A stretch of 33,452 bases of DNA, from assembly GCA_037446255.1 (NCBI GenBank), contig JBBIIY010000007.1, positions 1-33,452 of the forward strand, written 5' to 3'. Under the pieces are notes generated by a model. That model worked only from the letters and a program-made list of their open reading frames with translations, made no database searches and was not told the DNA's origin. Shown here one piece after another: positions 6,868 through 12,454 of this stretch. Both the position numbers and the translations under genes were made by a program. The stretch is from Lithacetigena sp037446255 [NCBI: Coprothermobacterota bacterium]. Lineage in GTDB: Bacteria > Coprothermobacterota > HKB111. Within the stretch, counting starts at the first letter, position 1. Every line of letters begins with the position of its first letter.

Positions 6868-7152
6868 TTATTCGCTGGTTATAGGAGGTGATTTCAAATA
6901 ATCCCCCTCTATCTCGGGAAAATTCTTGATAATATCATCTCTATTGGTGAAGGGCATTTCCCGGTCTTCCCTCAGGATAAGTTCCTGGGGATGAAAGTTT
7001 AAAGAGTCAGGATTTATAAAAGAGGTATCGTCAATCTCCCGTAATTGGTCAAAATATTTAATAACCATGAACACTTCTTTTTCCAGTATTTTTTCTTCCT
7101 CTTCGCTTACCTTTAGAGAAGCCAGTTTCAGAAGATTCCTAAGGTTTTTCAT
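6868..7152 (-). CDS. gatC: Asp-tRNA(Asn)/Glu-tRNA(Gln) amidotransferase subunit C
   Basis: GatC, the small subunit that wraps around GatA and stabilises the GatCAB complex. It has 94 aa, the usual size. Typical features are the N-terminal LLKLASLKVSEEEEKILEKE helix, a central YFDQLREID segment and the acidic LREDRE region. Its ATG overlaps the last 14 nt of the upstream propeller/SLH gene, implying coupled translation. gatA follows after 6 nt. Assignment rests on family pattern plus gatA next door. Confidence 0.93.
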   Translation of the reverse strand: MKNLRNLLKLASLKVSEEEEKILEKEVFMVIKYFDQLREIDDTSFINPDSLNFHPQELILREDREMPFTNRDDIIKNFPEIEGDYLKSPPITSE

Positions 7153-9394
7153 TTCTCAACCTCATAAGTATGGTAGTTGCTTCAGCCCTACTCAAGGGAA
7201 AGTGGGGGAGGAAGTTGCCTGCAGGGGTTCCCATAAAGATTCTTTCGCGATGGACAGCTTCAATAAGCAAATAGTAGGGATAGGTGGAAGCCACATCCTT
7301 GAAAGATGGTTTGGATGGCTGCTGAAAAGGCAATTTTAAAGCCAGGGCTACCCACTCGGCAGATTCTTCCCTCTTTATTTCGCTACCTGGATTGAACCTC
7401 CCACCAGCTATCAAGATTTTTCTTTTTACCAGTTCCTCAATAAAAGGAGAAGCCCAGTGAGTCAGTGGCACATCGGTAAATGAAGAATATATGGGCTTTC
7501 CTGGAACTATATTGAGTGCTTTAATTAGCATGACTGCAAATTGCGCCCGGGTGGTTATATGATTGGGTTTAAAACTTCCGTCTGGAAAACCAGCCACTAT
7601 GCCTTTTACTTGTGCGTTTTCGATTATACGCCTTATTGAGTGGAAGGTAGTATCATAGAAAATGGACCGGGAAAGAGTATTGAAACCGCCTATAAATAAC
7701 CCATTGGAAGTCCCCAGATAAACCCTGTTTCCATCTCTTAAAAATGATAGCACGGTGGAAGAAGGCAGTCCATCACGCGGGTTAACTCCCCTTGTAGTAC
7801 CGTATATGTTGTCCTGAAGGTAAAAACCATTTTCAGTTAAATAAAAAATATAATCTTCATCTTCATCTAACTTTAAAATATTGGCTGAAAAGGGCAGGTT
7901 ATAACTGGAAAAGGTTGAATTGGTTAGGTTAAGTTCCAAAACAGATTTACCGGTAGATACAAGAAGCCCTTTTTGAGTAGATATAATACTTCTTATGGGA
8001 GAAGTGGGGGCTCCGGTAAAGGTAATCCTGGTAAAATCGGCAGACTGCTGGGTCTTTCGGTAAAGACCGTTCACAGTACCTGCATAAAGAATATCTTCTT
8101 TTAGAAAAAGTGATATGGCATCTTTTAGAAAATAAGAGTCAAACCTCCTTTTTAGTGGCTCATACATCTGAACTCCCAGCTTGGTAGCCAGAATAATTTT
8201 GTCTTCATGTACTAATAGATCTAATACCTGATTATGGAACAGCCCCTTGCGGACATCAAAAGATTCCAATACTTTTTTCTGAGTTATACTGTAACGATAC
8301 AATCCATTGTTGGTAGCTATATAGCAATCGTCATTTGATTGAACTATATCATTAACCTCAACCTCTTTTATGATTTCGCTGAGATAATTTAACTCTTCAT
8401 CAAAAACAAAAAAACCATTAGCAGTACCGATAAAAAGGTCGGATTTATTTTTGCTTAGCATAGTTATACGGTTGGAAGTAAGCGGACTCAAACTGGCAAA
8501 TACCGCCCGGCTAAACAGGTTGTTCCTATTCATCCTTACCGCACCCTTGCTGGTTCCGGCAAAGATAAAACCGCTACCTACTTCAATCGTTTGTATTTCA
8601 GTGCTTATTACTTCAGGGGGTAGGTTCAAGTTTTGTACCAGCAAGTCCAGATTGGCTATTCTTAAACCTCTCTGAGTTCCTATATAAATCAGTCCGTCGG
8701 AAATCTTGAGAGATAATATTACGCTTACGGGGAGTCCTTCTTTAACCCCTAAAAACCGCGTCTCTGCTGTTTCGGGTTTATACCTGATAAGTCCCTGCGA
8801 GGTTCCCAGATAAATAAAATCGGAACTTGTTTCCAGGGCAATCACGCTCCCCTTAAAACCTGGTATTTCTATTTTTTTCAGAGCTTTCGTTAAGAGAGTA
8901 AGTTCGTATAAACCCAAGGGGGTGGCTATGTAAAGGTTGCCCTTTCTTTCCTTGAGCTCATTTACCTGAAGTACGGGGAAGCCGGGTAGTCGGGTGAATA
9001 TTCTTTTATCGTAAAAATACAGCCCGGAAGAAGTCCCCGTGAAAAAACCATCCTTTCCTTTATATAGGGCTGTTATGGTGGTATCATCTAAACCATTGGC
9101 CTGGTCATAAATATTTTTTAGGCTGCCCAGCCTGTCCAGTAATACCAATCCCCCTTGCATGGTTCCAGCAAAAACTCCTTCCTCGTGAGGATACAGGTAA
9201 AGAATCTCCATGGAAGTAAGACCATCAAGGGAGGTTATATTGATTCGTCTTCCTGTATTAGCTTCATACCTTACCAGACCACCGGTAGTAGCTGCCCACA
9301 GATAATTGTGGTGGAAAAGTAAATGACGGGTATTATCGTAACTATAAAGAAGTTTAGGGGTCTGCCCGTAAGTTGAATGGGGAGTAATCAGCAA
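7139..9394 (-). CDS. Secreted beta-propeller protein with C-terminal SLH domains
   Basis: At least 751 aa. Residues about 20-580 contain many short propeller-type repeats (LYIATPLGLY, IYIGTQRGLRI, LFIGTANGFFVF, CYIATNNGLYRY, LYAGTVNGLYR, VYLGTSNGLF), similar to the Reg_prop repeats of sensor propellers. Residues about 593-751 hold three S-layer-homology motifs (GIVAGFPDGSFKPNHITTRA, FTDVPLTHWASPFI, FKDVASTYPYY...LSRAEATTILMRL), which normally anchor proteins to cell-wall polymers. The only canonical start in the open frame is TTG at 9394, but 12 in-frame codons upstream (from 9430) add a basic-hydrophobic segment that makes a good signal peptide (KFRIITVFVLLLLLITPHS). The true start is therefore probably further upstream and non-canonical, or a base is missing near 9430. 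It lies between dnaN and gatC and overlaps gatC by 14 nt. Ligand and role are unknown. Confidence 0.85.
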   Translation of the reverse strand: MLITPHSTYGQTPKLLYSYDNTRHLLFHHNYLWAATTGGLVRYEANTGRRINITSLDGLTSMEILYLYPHEEGVFAGTMQGGLVLLDRLGSLKNIYDQANGLDDTTITALYKGKDGFFTGTSSGLYFYDKRIFTRLPGFPVLQVNELKERKGNLYIATPLGLYELTLLTKALKKIEIPGFKGSVIALETSSDFIYLGTSQGLIRYKPETAETRFLGVKEGLPVSVILSLKISDGLIYIGTQRGLRIANLDLLVQNLNLPPEVISTEIQTIEVGSGFIFAGTSKGAVRMNRNNLFSRAVFASLSPLTSNRITMLSKNKSDLFIGTANGFFVFDEELNYLSEIIKEVEVNDIVQSNDDCYIATNNGLYRYSITQKKVLESFDVRKGLFHNQVLDLLVHEDKIILATKLGVQMYEPLKRRFDSYFLKDAISLFLKEDILYAGTVNGLYRKTQQSADFTRITFTGAPTSPIRSIISTQKGLLVSTGKSVLELNLTNSTFSSYNLPFSANILKLDEDEDYIFYLTENGFYLQDNIYGTTRGVNPRDGLPSSTVLSFLRDGNRVYLGTSNGLFIGGFNTLSRSIFYDTTFHSIRRIIENAQVKGIVAGFPDGSFKPNHITTRAQFAVMLIKALNIVPGKPIYSSFTDVPLTHWASPFIEELVKRKILIAGGRFNPGSEIKREESAEWVALALKLPFQQPSKPSFKDVASTYPYYLLIEAVHRERIFMGTPAGNFLPHFPLSRAEATTILMRLRNEKP

Positions 9395-9422: not shown

Positions 9423-10547
9423 CTAAATTTGCATGGGCATGATGAGTGCCAGATAGTATCCTCCTACCAGGTCATCGGCTTTAGGTATTTTCTGATTGGT
9501 TATTAAAATGGGACTCTGGGAGCTGTTAAATCCAAAGAAAAGGGTGTCTGAATTACTATTTTTCAAAGCATCTACAAAATAACGGGGATTTATAAAAATA
9601 TCCAGTTTATTACCAGTGAATTCAACTGCCTCTACGGTCTCTACTCCCTCCCCCACACCAGCAACATTTATGGTTAGAGTTAATAAATCCCCCACAGCGA
9701 ATTTTAAGGGTTCATGTTGATTTAAGGTGGTCAGGCGGTCTAATGACTGCAATAAAGGCTGGGTTTTCATGTTCAAGATGGTGGTGCAGGTACGGGGAAT
9801 AACTTCTTCGTAGGGAGGAAACTTGGCTCCTAACAGCTTGAAAGTCATATGGGTATTCCCCTGAATAAAATCAACCTGTTTCTGGTCCCATCTTATGGAT
9901 ATATCCTCCCCGCTGTTTAAATATTCCACCAGTCTCAAATCGGCAGCGCTTATCATGGCAAAAAGGTTCTGATTGGGAAAGGATATTAATTCCCCTTCTC
10001 CAACACTTAGCCTGTGCCCGTCAGTGCTAACCACTCTAAACAGGTTTTTGTTATTAGTCAATAGGGCCCCGCTTAATCCTTCCCTTTCTACTTCTCTGGA
10101 TGCAGAAAACAGGCCCTGTTTGAGTATAGTTGAAAGGACAGACTGACTTATCTTTAACTCCTTACTATCTTCGGCAAAAGGAATTATTGGGAACTCCTCA
10201 ACTGACATCAGCTGGAAGGAAAAAGAAGATTTATCGGTTTTTATAATCAATTGGTTGTTGTTCAGAAATAAACTAACTTCCTCTTCATTCAATTTTCTCA
10301 GGATATCCGAAACTAATTTACCGGGAAATAATATTGAACCCTCGCTTTCACAATGATAATCAACAGAAGTGGTAATTGCTTTTTTTAAATCGGTAGCAGT
10401 TAATTTGATTTTTTCGTTAGTGTATTCCAGAAGTACCTGGCTTAAATAGGGATAAGTTGTTTTTCCCGCAGGTAAAGATAAGCTGGTTTTGTCCAGTGCT
10501 GAAGAAAAGACTTTTCTTTTTACTTTTATTTCTACAGGTTTGTTCAT
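9423..10547 (-). CDS. dnaN: DNA polymerase III beta subunit (sliding clamp)
   Basis: DnaN, the ring-shaped processivity clamp, 374 aa (typical 365-380). Three similar domains are recognisable: the N-terminal domain (VFSSALDKTSLSLPAGKTTY...LSQVLLEYTNEKIKLTATDL), a middle domain with VVSTDGHRLSVGEGEL, and a C-terminal domain ending YLALIMPMQI, matching the conserved P-M-R/Q clamp C-terminus. A strong AGGAGG lies ahead of the ATG. It is downstream of dnaA with the AT-rich spacer between them. Its last codons overlap the probable extended start of the propeller/SLH gene. Confidence 0.97.
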   Translation of the reverse strand: MNKPVEIKVKRKVFSSALDKTSLSLPAGKTTYPYLSQVLLEYTNEKIKLTATDLKKAITTSVDYHCESEGSILFPGKLVSDILRKLNEEEVSLFLNNNQLIIKTDKSSFSFQLMSVEEFPIIPFAEDSKELKISQSVLSTILKQGLFSASREVEREGLSGALLTNNKNLFRVVSTDGHRLSVGEGELISFPNQNLFAMISAADLRLVEYLNSGEDISIRWDQKQVDFIQGNTHMTFKLLGAKFPPYEEVIPRTCTTILNMKTQPLLQSLDRLTTLNQHEPLKFAVGDLLTLTINVAGVGEGVETVEAVEFTGNKLDIFINPRYFVDALKNSNSDTLFFGFNSSQSPILITNQKIPKADDLVGGYYLALIMPMQI

Positions 10548-10831
10548 TTTTAAATCCTCCTGAACTTAGTGCTACTAAAATATTTTATATCTTTTATAGT
10601 AGTAATAGTACAAATTTTTTGTTAATAATTAAAAAAAACTTTATTCTTGCAACTCATCTTTTTATACCTGTTTTGTTAGTAATTGGTTGATAAGTCCTAC
10701 TTATAAACATCAAAAGCGACCTGTGTTAGTAAAGCGGTAGTTTTTAACCAACAATCAACCTACTTATTAACAATTTATTAACATAATGTTAACAACTTCA
10801 ATATATTATAGAATTCAGGTTATTTTTTGAA
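10548..10831. other. Probable oriC in the dnaA-dnaN spacer, with TTAYTAACA iterons
   Basis: This 284-bp AT-rich spacer separates dnaA from dnaN. No canonical TTATCCACA box is present. Instead the 9-mer TTAYTAACA occurs five times: minus strand at 10620-10628, 10674-10682 and 10724-10732, plus strand at 10764-10772 and 10775-10783. The last two are 11 bp apart, with a weaker ATGTTAACA a further 11 bp on (10786). Near-matches are TTATAAACA (10701-10709, plus) and TTATCAACC (10685-10693, minus). AT-rich tracts at 10570-10650 and 10795-10830 could be the unwinding element. oriC assignment is from position and clustering; function is inferred. Confidence 0.6.
10584..10613 (-). promoter_or_regulatory. 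Candidate dnaN promoter
   Basis: Read on the minus strand, TTGTAC (10608-10613) and TATAAA (10584-10589) are separated by 18 bp and lie about 40 bp upstream of the dnaN ATG. One candidate TTAYTAACA box (10620-10628) is immediately upstream of the -35, which would allow DnaA to influence dnaN. Pattern match only. Confidence 0.4.
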
Positions 10832-12181
10832 TCAGCGTTTTTTCAGAGAGGAAATAATTGAATCAATAACCCTCTTAATATCAGGATTCTCTGAAATATC
10901 CTTTTTTACCTTTTCACAGGCATGTAAAACCGTAGCATGATTTTTTTTACCGAACCACCGCCCGATGGTCAATAAAGAATGGTTGGTAAGTTCACGGGAA
11001 AGATACATAGCAACTTGCCTGGCCTGAACAATGTCCTGGGTTCTCCGGGTGGAGGTAATATCTTCTTTTTTGATGTTGAAGTGGCGGGAAATGGCTTCCT
11101 GAATATCTTCCAAGGTTGGCTTGGCGCTTTCAGGTTTTTCAAAGACCCCTTTTAATACATTCTGGGCTAAAGTGAGGGTGAGAGGAAGTTCCTGCAGAGA
11201 TGACACAGCCATAACCCTGTTTAAAGCACCTTCCAATTCCCGAATGTTTTCGGTAATCAAAGAGGCAATATATTCCAGGACTTCATTCGGAATGGAATCT
11301 TTTTGTTTCAGGTTGTTAATTACTTTATTCCTTAATATAGCTACCCGGGTTTCAAAATCGGGAACATCTATATCAGCCATTAAACCCCACTCAAAGCGAG
11401 AACGAAGCCTCTCCTCCAAATTGGGTATTTCACGCGGCAGTCTGTCAGAGGTCATAACTACCTGCTTACGGGTTTCGTACAGGGTGTTGAAAGTATGAAA
11501 AAATTCTTCCTGAGTCCGTTCCTTACCGCTTAAAAACTGGACATCATCTATAAGGAGCACATCTACATGGCGGTATTTATTTTGAAATTCACCGGTCTTT
11601 CTTTCGCCTATGGCTTTGATTAACTCATTGACGAATTTTTCACAGGATACATAAAGGAATTTTTTCCTTTTATACTTCTCCTTTACCCGGTTGGCAATAG
11701 CATGCAGCAGGTGGGTTTTTCCCAGTCCCACACCTCCGTAGAGAAATAGAGGGTTGTAAGCCTTGCCGGGATTATCCGCTACCGCACGTGAAGTAGCAAA
11801 GGCCAGTTTATTGCTGCTTCCTACCACAAACCGGTCAAAAGTGTATAAATTATTGATGGTATGGTCTTCGGTTATCTCTTCGTCATCCTCTGCTTCTTCC
11901 AGGCGGGGGGCTGGGGGAGCTACAATTTTTTCCGCTTCTTTAACCGAAAAATCAACTTTAACCGGTAAATTAAGGCGAAGATTAAGGGCATCCTGGATAA
12001 TGTTAAGACAATTGGAAGTGAGCCAATCTCGGGCAAATTCGGAAGGTACCACCAGAGTGATAACTTCGGGGGTAAACCTGGAAATGGAAATGGGTTTAAT
12101 CCACATCTCAAAAACCGGTTGCGAAACCTTCTGTTTTATCTCTTTTAAAGCTTCCGTCCATGCAGGCTTGATCTCTTCCAA
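10832..12181 (-). CDS. dnaA: Chromosomal replication initiator protein DnaA
   Basis: DnaA, the AAA+ initiator, 449 aa (normal length). Domain I is at about 1-80, followed by a short acidic linker. Walker A GGVGLGKT is at 149-156 and Walker B LLIDDVQFL has D212 and D213. Sensor and arginine-finger segments follow (LRSRFEWGLMADI). The domain IV signature is ELTNHSLLTIGRWFGKKNHA. By alignment to E. coli DnaA, the minor-groove arginine R399 is kept (R380), and H434 and T436 are kept (H415, T417). Three other major-groove contact residues differ: P423 to L404, D433 to N414, T435 to A416. The start codon is TTG at 12181 with an AAGGAG 10 nt upstream. The gene is divergent from rpmH, as in Bacillota origins. 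Confidence 0.97.
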   Translation of the reverse strand: MEEIKPAWTEALKEIKQKVSQPVFEMWIKPISISRFTPEVITLVVPSEFARDWLTSNCLNIIQDALNLRLNLPVKVDFSVKEAEKIVAPPAPRLEEAEDDEEITEDHTINNLYTFDRFVVGSSNKLAFATSRAVADNPGKAYNPLFLYGGVGLGKTHLLHAIANRVKEKYKRKKFLYVSCEKFVNELIKAIGERKTGEFQNKYRHVDVLLIDDVQFLSGKERTQEEFFHTFNTLYETRKQVVMTSDRLPREIPNLEERLRSRFEWGLMADIDVPDFETRVAILRNKVINNLKQKDSIPNEVLEYIASLITENIRELEGALNRVMAVSSLQELPLTLTLAQNVLKGVFEKPESAKPTLEDIQEAISRHFNIKKEDITSTRRTQDIVQARQVAMYLSRELTNHSLLTIGRWFGKKNHATVLHACEKVKKDISENPDIKRVIDSIISSLKKR

Positions 12182-12319
12182 TTACTCTTTACTCCTTCGG
12201 TTTTTAGTTGAGGATATATTAACTTAACCTGTTCAGGTAATAAATATAATAGCACTTTTTAGCAATTTATAATATAATTTTACTTACAACAATGGTAAAT
12301 GGACTAAAGGAGGTTAAAA
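12182..12319. promoter_or_regulatory. Divergent dnaA / rpmH promoter region
   Basis: A 138-bp AT-rich spacer between two divergent genes. On the plus strand TATAAT appears at 12245-12250 and overlapping copies at 12268-12278, giving candidate -10 boxes for rpmH without a convincing -35. A perfect inverted repeat ACCTG-TT-CAGGT lies at 12227-12238, close to the dnaA start, and could be an operator. An AAGGAGG ribosome binding site precedes rpmH. No canonical DnaA box is seen. Confidence 0.45.
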
Positions 12320-12454
12320 ATGAAAAGAACCCACCAACCTAAAAAAAAGAAAAGAAGCAAGACTCACGGGTTTCTAATCCGTATGCGCACTCCTGGTGGA
12401 AGGCAAGTAATTAGAAGAAGACGCTTGAAAAGAAGGAAGCGTCTGACTGTATAG
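12320..12454 (+). CDS. rpmH: 50S ribosomal protein L34
   Basis: A 44-aa highly basic protein beginning [18 protein letters not shown] and ending [12 protein letters not shown], the classic L34 pattern (MKRT.QP...THGF..RM.T..GR.V...RR...RK.L). It belongs to the 50S subunit near the peptide-exit side. A strong AAGGAGG lies 8 nt before the ATG. It is the first gene of the plus-strand block and is followed by rnpA after 6 nt, the near-universal rpmH-rnpA pairing. Confidence 0.97.

What the first reader, a model, noticed from the sequence alone, without database searches (positions are those of the whole stretch)
10548..12181. Non-canonical DnaA boxes matched by a changed DnaA recognition helix
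Seen: the dnaA-dnaN spacer has no TTATCCACA but has five TTAYTAACA 9-mers in 164 bp (10620, 10674, 10724 on minus; 10764, 10775 on plus), two of them 11 bp apart with a weaker third in phase, plus near-matches TTATAAACA and TTATCAACC. Versus TTATNCACA the common change is C to A at position 6. By a rough composition estimate, well under one copy is expected by chance. The DnaA encoded next door differs at three residues known to touch bases in the major groove in E. coli DnaA domain IV (P423 to L404, D433 to N414, T435 to A416), while R399, H434 and T436 are kept. Inference: box and initiator have co-diverged, giving an altered origin code.
Basis: partly seen in the sequence, partly recalled or inferred. 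Interest (0 to 1): 0.72.

Follow-up and report, generated by a model that had tools for sequence, protein, structure and literature searches.

The report
Replication origin with altered DnaA boxes
This is an ordinary-looking bacterial chromosome replication origin whose start signals are spelled TTATTAACA or TTACTAACA instead of TTATCCACA, next to an initiator protein whose DNA-reading helix is also altered; comparison with other bacteria suggests, but does not prove, that the two changes belong together.

Summary
The 284-bp dnaA-dnaN spacer has exactly the five TTAYTAACA sites reported (0.07 expected in shuffles), plus TTATAAACA and TTGTTAACA, and no TTNYNCACA site. The encoded DnaA carries P423L, D433N and T435A and keeps R399, H434 and T436. 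The spacer is very probably oriC: the box at 10620-10628 sits 11 nt from four DnaA-trios (0 of 5,000 shuffles), and the window's cumulative GC-skew minimum lies here. The co-divergence inference is only partly supported. Against it: boxes with A at position 6 are common beside unchanged helices (204 A6, 518 C6 in 99 canonical loci), TTATTAACA is already a reported putative box in mycoplasmas, and some other T435A DnaAs keep CACA boxes. For it: with the window left out, the A6 share rises with residue 435 (Thr 0.25, Ser 0.49, Ala 0.65 over similarity clusters; permutation p about 0.03); inside one order, T435A genomes have 13 TCAACA and 2 TCCACA cores after dnaA against 15 and 45 in unchanged sisters; a D433N-only DnaA has six A6 and no C6 sites. 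P423L shows no significant association. I read this as a known kind of origin with a shifted box preference; binding is untested.

The parts
10832..12181 (-). dnaA (449 aa, TTG start behind GAAGGAG); domain IV has L404 (P423L), N414 (D433N), A416 (T435A)
   Evidence: Pfam Bac_DnaA 1.3e-71, Bac_DnaA_C 1.2e-29, DnaA_N 1.2e-14; alignment to the 1j1v sequence; start region
9423..10547 (-). dnaN, sliding clamp
   Evidence: three DNA_pol3_beta domains
10548..10831 (.). dnaA-dnaN spacer, 284 bp, 24% GC, proposed oriC (box cluster plus unwinding element)
10597..10608 (+). four DnaA-trios, + strand 5'-TAG TAG TAA TAG-3' (read 3'-GAT AAT GAT GAT-5' away from the box); proposed start of unwinding
   Evidence: rule of PMC8287927 (at least 3 trios within 16 bp of a box)
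10609..10619 (.). 11-bp linker between box and trios; AT-rich, no clear second box
10620..10628 (-). trio-proximal DnaA box TTATTAACA (place of B. subtilis box 6/7)
10674..10682 (-). DnaA box TTACTAACA
10685..10693 (-). near-match TTATCAACC
10701..10709 (+). DnaA box-like TTATAAACA
10724..10732 (-). DnaA box TTACTAACA
10764..10772 (+). DnaA box TTATTAACA, first of an 11-bp-phased array
10775..10783 (+). DnaA box TTATTAACA, second of the array
10787..10795 (-). DnaA box-like TTGTTAACA; the palindromic GTTAAC also gives the weaker in-phase + strand site ATGTTAACA at 10786

Best explanation
The dnaA-dnaN spacer is the chromosome origin (oriC) of an unplaced, Firmicutes-like bacterium. It works by the basal unwinding system: DnaA binds a box cluster, the box nearest dnaN (10620-10628) seeds a DnaA-ATP oligomer onto the trios at 10597-10608, and the duplex opens toward dnaN. 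Shown by sequence: the box cluster, trios, spacing, neighbouring genes and local skew minimum. Inferred: binding and opening. The boxes are shifted from TTATNCACA to TTAYTAACA, chiefly C to A at position 6. I think most likely that this is matched by domain IV: T435A removes a side chain that favours C6, so A6 (with a thymine methyl on the other strand) is accepted or preferred; D433N may add to this; P423L is neutral. The matching rests on a cross-genome trend and one within-order contrast, not on a binding test. The confidence given is for this matching; for oriC alone it would be about 0.93.
For: Boxes: 5 observed, 0.07 expected; 7 A6-family and 0 C6-family sites in the spacer. Unwinding element: four trios 11 bp from the box, 0 of 5,000 shuffles. 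Cumulative GC-skew minimum at 11-12 kb of the window. Domain IV model pLDDT 91.6, Z 20.2 and 0.8 A over 94 residues to 1j1v. Trend without the window, 66 cluster units: T435 mean A6 share 0.25 (25 units), S435 0.49 (28), G435 0.38 (3), A435 0.65 (10); A435 coefficient 1.06 with GC as covariate, permutation p 0.03; non-D433 p 0.024. With the window: A435 p 0.023 and non-D433 p 0.012 by locus, 0.023 and 0.016 by cluster. Spacer only, without the window: A435 19 A6 and 5 C6, T435 81 and 174; A435 p 0.0175. Within one order, 300 bp after dnaA: three A435 genomes 13 TCAACA and 2 TCCACA; nine unchanged sisters 15 and 45 (one event, unmatched for anything but the order). L304 (D433N alone): 6 A6, 0 C6.
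Against: A6 boxes are common with unchanged helices: 204 A6 and 518 C6 in 99 loci; trio-proximal box A6 in 16 of the 73 of these where one was found; L022, L027 and L066 mostly A6. L255 (N433, A435): 3 A6, 3 C6, trio-proximal TTATTCACA. L099 and L100 (A435): 2 A6 to 3 C6 and 0 to 3. L273-L275 (A435) keep C6 next to the trios. With the stricter motif TTATN[A/C]ACA the trend weakens (A435 p 0.07, non-D433 p 0.11). The D433 effect depends on L304 (p 0.10 without it) and is not significant in spacers only (p 0.16). L255 and L099 drop out of the spacer-only test because no dnaN was detected within reach. No close relative and no whole genome of the window were available.
Confidence: 0.5

Rival explanations
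1. AT drift within normal tolerance. The spacer is oriC, but A6 boxes arose as in many AT-rich Clostridia, whose ordinary DnaA accepts TTATCAACA and TTATTAACA. The helix substitutions are neutral for base 6, and their coincidence here is chance.
For: A6 boxes beside canonical helices are frequent, and A6 share falls with GC (coefficient -0.5 per 10% GC). In spacers only, 3 of 45 canonical and 6 of 28 non-canonical loci with at least 3 boxes are purely A6 (window among the 6; Fisher p 0.078; without the window, with L045 counted, 5 of 28, p 0.25).
Against: With 280 bp upstream plus 500 bp downstream, GC below 0.36 and at least 3 boxes, 0 of 44 canonical but 4 of 26 other loci are purely A6 (p 0.016; without the window 3 of 25, p 0.044). 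The A435 effect remains with GC as covariate. Two A435 groups at about 48-52% GC still have AACA sites (L258/L259/L261, and L278).
Confidence: 0.38
2. Relaxed rather than switched specificity: losing T435 and D433 contacts lowers selectivity, so the boxes drift to AT-rich spellings and initiation relies on box number, phasing and trios.
For: Two boxes have C at position 4 (TTACTAACA) and one is TTATAAACA. A435 loci mix A6 and C6. E. coli T435M is defective in box binding (PMC5742627, passage read).
Against: All seven sites found by the A6 pattern are in one spacer and the C6 pattern finds none there, which pure relaxation would not favour.
Confidence: 0.1
3. Not the functional origin: the boxes are a dnaA/dnaN regulatory cluster and canonical boxes serve oriC elsewhere.
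For: Only 33.5 kb of the chromosome is available.
Against: Trios in register with a box, local skew minimum, origin-type gene order, and no cluster of C6 boxes in the window (at most 2 in 284 bp).
Confidence: 0.04

Closest known systems
B. subtilis-type oriC with basal unwinding system (dnaA-dnaN spacer, incC)
   Same: Box next to DnaA-trios, downstream of dnaA, trios on the dnaN side; spacing 11 bp, inside the reported 10-13 bp peak (PMC8287927, passages read)
   Different: Trio-proximal box is TTATTAACA; no clear second tandem box (linker TACAAATTTTT); no boxes upstream of dnaA
Mycoplasma hominis / M. mobile / M. arthritidis oriC boxes
   Same: Identical 9-mer TTATTAACA reported as putative DnaA box (PMC2751442, one passage and abstract read)
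   Different: There upstream of dnaA, and in M. hominis none between dnaA and dnaN; their DnaA helices were not examined here
Clostridial oriCs with TTATCAACA/TTATTAACA boxes (L018, L022, L049, L066)
   Same: A6 boxes, trios, similar spacer length and GC
   Different: DnaA with P423, D433 and T435 (S435 in L049); C6 boxes also present in the dnaA flanks
Thermotoga maritima DnaA and its divergent box
   Same: Altered recognition helix together with altered box (PMC6669920 and PMC10316083, passages read)
   Different: Box ACCTACCAC, a wholly different sequence; the best match in this spacer is 7 of 9
Epsilonproteobacterial DnaA (H. pylori, A. butzleri)
   Same: Shifted box preference (T5) proposed to follow changes at residues 435 and 438-439; P423L in H. 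pylori (PMC5043019, passages read)
   Different: C6 kept (TTCAC core); the shift is at position 5

Membership tests
DnaA initiator family | DnaA_N, AAA+ and DnaA_C domains | tested here: met
   Pfam
DnaA initiator family | domain IV fold as in the DNA complex 1j1v | tested here: met
   AlphaFold model pLDDT 91.6; Z 20.2, 0.8 A, 94 residues
Canonical DnaA/TTATNCACA recognition | P423, D433, H434, T435 kept | tested here: not met
   L, N, H, A in the window
Canonical DnaA/TTATNCACA recognition | cluster of TTWTNCACA boxes at the origin | tested here: not met
   0 TTNYNCACA in the spacer, 0 TTATCCACA in the window
Basal unwinding system (BUS) oriC | DnaA box within 16 bp of at least three DnaA-trios | tested here: met
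   TTATTAACA, 11 bp, four trios; 0 of 5,000 shuffles
Basal unwinding system (BUS) oriC | tandem pair of boxes before the trios (57% of predicted origins, PMC8287927) | tested here: inconclusive
   second box degenerate at best: linker TACAAATTTTT
Basal unwinding system (BUS) oriC | DnaA-dependent strand separation needing box and trios | not testable with these tools
   needs purified protein
Thermotoga-type divergent box | ACCTACCAC boxes | tested here: not met
   best match 7 of 9 in the spacer
Chromosome origin | global GC-skew minimum | tested here: inconclusive
   local cumulative minimum at 11-12 kb of the 33.5-kb window; whole genome not held

The most novel reading that the evidence does not exclude
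Residue 435 of DnaA, helped by 433, is a recurrent evolutionary dial for base 6 of the DnaA box: Thr favours CACA, Ser mixes, Ala moves origins toward AACA, in more than one phylum independently, and this window is a case that has gone fully to A6.
Probability: 0.35. Interest if true: 0.62.

Novelty: new variant of a known kind. Interest (0 to 1): 0.42.

Why it matters
If T435A really moves the box from CACA to AACA, origin prediction that searches for TTATCCACA-like boxes will score such origins poorly, and a residue-to-base rule would let box spelling be guessed from DnaA sequence. It would also give a natural, partly orthogonal initiator-box pair, and a clear question: how an essential initiator and its multi-copy site change together without losing initiation. 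If it is only AT drift, it shows how tolerant ordinary DnaA is at position 6.

Tried and rejected
Near-full-length DnaA matches reach 52%, partial ones 55%. So joint change could not be followed along the window's own lineage, and its phylum is unplaced: on two quick DnaA trees it is a long, unstable branch (where the careful tree did not finish, from which 14 near-duplicate or distant rows were left out by hand).

D433N alone as the cause of A6: weakened by L259 (D433, A435, 6 TCAACA and 0 TCCACA), L255 and the loss of significance without L304. P423L as cause: no significant association. C at position 4 tied to non-P423: 3 of 70 TTA?N[A/C]ACA sites against 24 of 590, and 2 of the 3 are the window's own. 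D433H with T435 (L030, L054, L078): 1 A6, 7 C6, no shift; L053 (H433, S435) 2 and 2. L307 and L308 count as A435 loci, but no dnaN was found after their dnaA; they drop out.

Limits of the statistics: one-sided permutations shuffle labels among 60%-identity clusters (split where members differ in label) within two sampling groups, not on a tree; sites are counted by pattern, not by binding; six model runs were made (three in 61, 72) and all are quoted. The A435 loci of one phylum were chosen by a DNA pattern for the helix, not by their boxes, but the window was chosen for both, hence the tests without it. Dropped: L029, L096, L097, L098 (genomes already present) and L264 (partial gene); before one search also L265-L270 (same genomes). 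Near-identical loci remained in the raw counts. One of 60 control loci could not be parsed, and L045 had an unreadable motif. 26 of 99 canonical loci gave no trio-proximal box by my rule (6 of 7 fixed positions), and one of the 16 A6 ones is TTATCAAGA.

Viral contigs scan for the N-H-A-T-V motif gave proteins with DnaA_C-like segments, not origins; not used. Three contigs of an unnamed fragmented genome were fetched hoping for a divergent dnaA and were not used. Rfam found nothing in the window at its thresholds. Literature: no paper linking residue 435 or 433 to base 6 turned up in the listings; that is eight searches of one open-access library at most, so it is no proof of absence.

Full report
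WHAT IS THERE. The window carries dnaE, gatB, gatA, gatC, dnaN and dnaA on the minus strand up to 12181, and rpmH, rnpA, yidC, jag, mnmE, mnmG, rsmG, gltX and recF on the plus strand (Pfam was run only on DnaA, DnaN, RecF and two other proteins; the other names are my reading of the translations). The dnaA-dnaN spacer is 10548-10831, 284 bp, 24% GC. No whole genome is held for the window.

THE OBSERVATION. Exactly the five reported TTAYTAACA sites are present, against 0.071 expected in dinucleotide shuffles of the spacer; none of 3,000 shuffles had five. The wider family TTNYNAACA has 7 sites in the spacer and TTNYNCACA none; outside the spacer no 284-bp stretch of the window has more than 2 of the A6 family. 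The window has no TTATCCACA. P423L, D433N and T435A, with R399, H434 and T436 kept, are confirmed on the alignment to 1j1v. The positions matter: base-specific contacts come from residues 399, 423, 432-435 and 438-439 (PMC5043019, passages read); the recognition helix reads TnCACA in the major groove and R399 reads TTA in the minor groove (PMC5742627, passage read); D433 and L438 matter for position 7 (PMC8235120, passage read). Which base T435 touches I did not find in the passages read.

IT IS AN ORIGIN OF THE BUS TYPE. On the minus strand, which runs dnaA to dnaN, the box TTATTAACA (10628-10620) is followed by 11 nt and then CTA TTA CTA CTA (10608-10597), that is, trios 3'-GAT AAT GAT GAT-5' on the plus strand. 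This meets the published rule of a box within 16 bp of at least three trios, with a spacing peak of 10-13 bp (PMC8287927, passages read). None of 5,000 shuffled spacers gives a box plus four trios. Many of the comparison loci show the same layout. Cumulative GC skew in the window falls to its minimum at 11-12 kb and then rises. No box lies between dnaA and rpmH, so the origin looks one-part.

DOES THE BOX CHANGE NEED THE HELIX CHANGE? No. In 138 dnaA loci, 99 have P423, D433, H434, T435, T436. In their spacers and 600 bp upstream, TTNTN[A/C]ACA sites number 204 with A6 and 518 with C6; a trio-proximal box was found in 73, with A at position 6 in 16. L022 (6 A6, 2 C6), L027 (4, 0) and L066 (9, 2) are mostly A6. 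TTATTAACA is printed as a putative box of M. hominis, M. mobile and M. arthritidis (PMC2751442), TT(T/A)TCAACA as a proposed mollicute motif (PMC3322544) and TTATCAACA as a box on the Cyanothece linear chromosome (PMC4674748); I read passages of each.

DO THEY GO TOGETHER? To some extent. A DNA pattern for G-x-[RK]-[ND]-H-A-T-V matched 8 of 398 Bacillota genomes, of which 6 were dnaA, three with N433. In the phylum of a Syntrophaceae locus it matched 14 of 237 genomes, of which 10 were dnaA by my search, all with D433. I took 60 other genomes of that phylum at steps of about four as controls (58 with a match) and pooled everything into 207 loci, 101 of them canonical. Counts by residue 435, window included: Ala 36 A6 and 20 C6, Ser 86 and 127, Thr 178 and 453. 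Without the window, in clusters of 60% DnaA identity, the mean A6 share is 0.25 for Thr (25 units), 0.49 for Ser (28) and 0.65 for Ala (10), at mean GC 0.41, 0.41 and 0.44; with GC as covariate the A435 term has permutation p 0.03, the Ser/Gly term 0.03 and the non-D433 term 0.024. With the strict TTATN[A/C]ACA motif A435 and non-D433 become 0.07 and 0.11; without L304 they become 0.007 and 0.10. With the window included they are 0.023 and 0.012 by locus and 0.023 and 0.016 by cluster. In dnaA-dnaN spacers (157 of 207 loci), without the window, A435 has 19 A6 and 5 C6 in 5 units, T435 81 and 174 in 16 units, p 0.0175; non-D433 p 0.16. The P423 term is never significant (p 0.08 to 0.84).

CASES. 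In one order of 12 genomes, three have A435 and E423 (L258 and L261 with N433, L259 with D433). In the 300 bp after dnaA they have 13 TCAACA and 2 TCCACA cores at about 50% GC; nine sisters with unchanged residues have 15 and 45. This is a joint change, but of one lineage and with other differences, since their DnaA lies on a very long branch. L259 has 6 TCAACA and 0 TCCACA with D433, so the shift there does not need D433N. L304, with D433N and T435 kept, has 6 A6 and 0 C6. Against: L255 (Q423, N433, A435, S439) has 3 A6 and 3 C6 and trio-proximal TTATTCACA; L099 (A435) has 2 A6 and 3 C6 and L100 (A435) 0 and 3, upstream of dnaA, TTATCCACA among them; L273-L275 (A435) keep TTTTTCACA or TTTTACACA next to the trios while their other boxes are mostly AACA (by eye). 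Purely A6 loci also include L300 (P423, D433, S435) and L301 (S423, D433, S435).

HOW IT MOST LIKELY WORKS. DnaA fills the 11-bp-phased boxes (10764, 10775, about 10787) and the minus-strand boxes, and the trio-proximal box starts the oligomer that captures the plus strand and opens the duplex toward dnaN. The model of domain IV keeps the known fold, so recognition rather than fold is what changes. I infer that loss of the Thr435 side chain removes a bias for C:G at position 6 and leaves room for the thymine methyl of A:T, with Asn414 a possible supporting change. This step is inference; the statistics are modest and not corrected on a tree.

VERDICT. A real, well-built origin of a known kind with a non-canonical box spelling and an unusually altered recognition helix.

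Noticed in passing
L105, L125, L141, L200 and other viral contig loci: A scan for the motif N-H-A-T-V found many viral contigs whose translated hit lies in a DnaA_C-like helix-turn-helix, the same N433/A435 pair as the window's DnaA; protein lengths and DNA targets were not examined.
   Followed up: no
12182-12320: The dnaA-rpmH intergenic region has no DnaA box of either spelling, unlike several of the Firmicutes loci printed.
   Followed up: partly
7139-9394: A 751-aa protein that looks like beta-propeller repeats plus S-layer-type repeats (my reading of the translation, no family search) sits directly after dnaN.
   Followed up: no
whole window: Near-full-length DnaA matches reach only 52% and MnmG about 41-48% (partial 53-56%), so the source is a deep lineage not met in the genome samples searched.
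   Followed up: partly
L334, L337, L338: Divergent dnaA genes with K at position 433 and S at 435 and no A6 or C6 box in the counted flanks; their box sequence is unknown.
   Followed up: no
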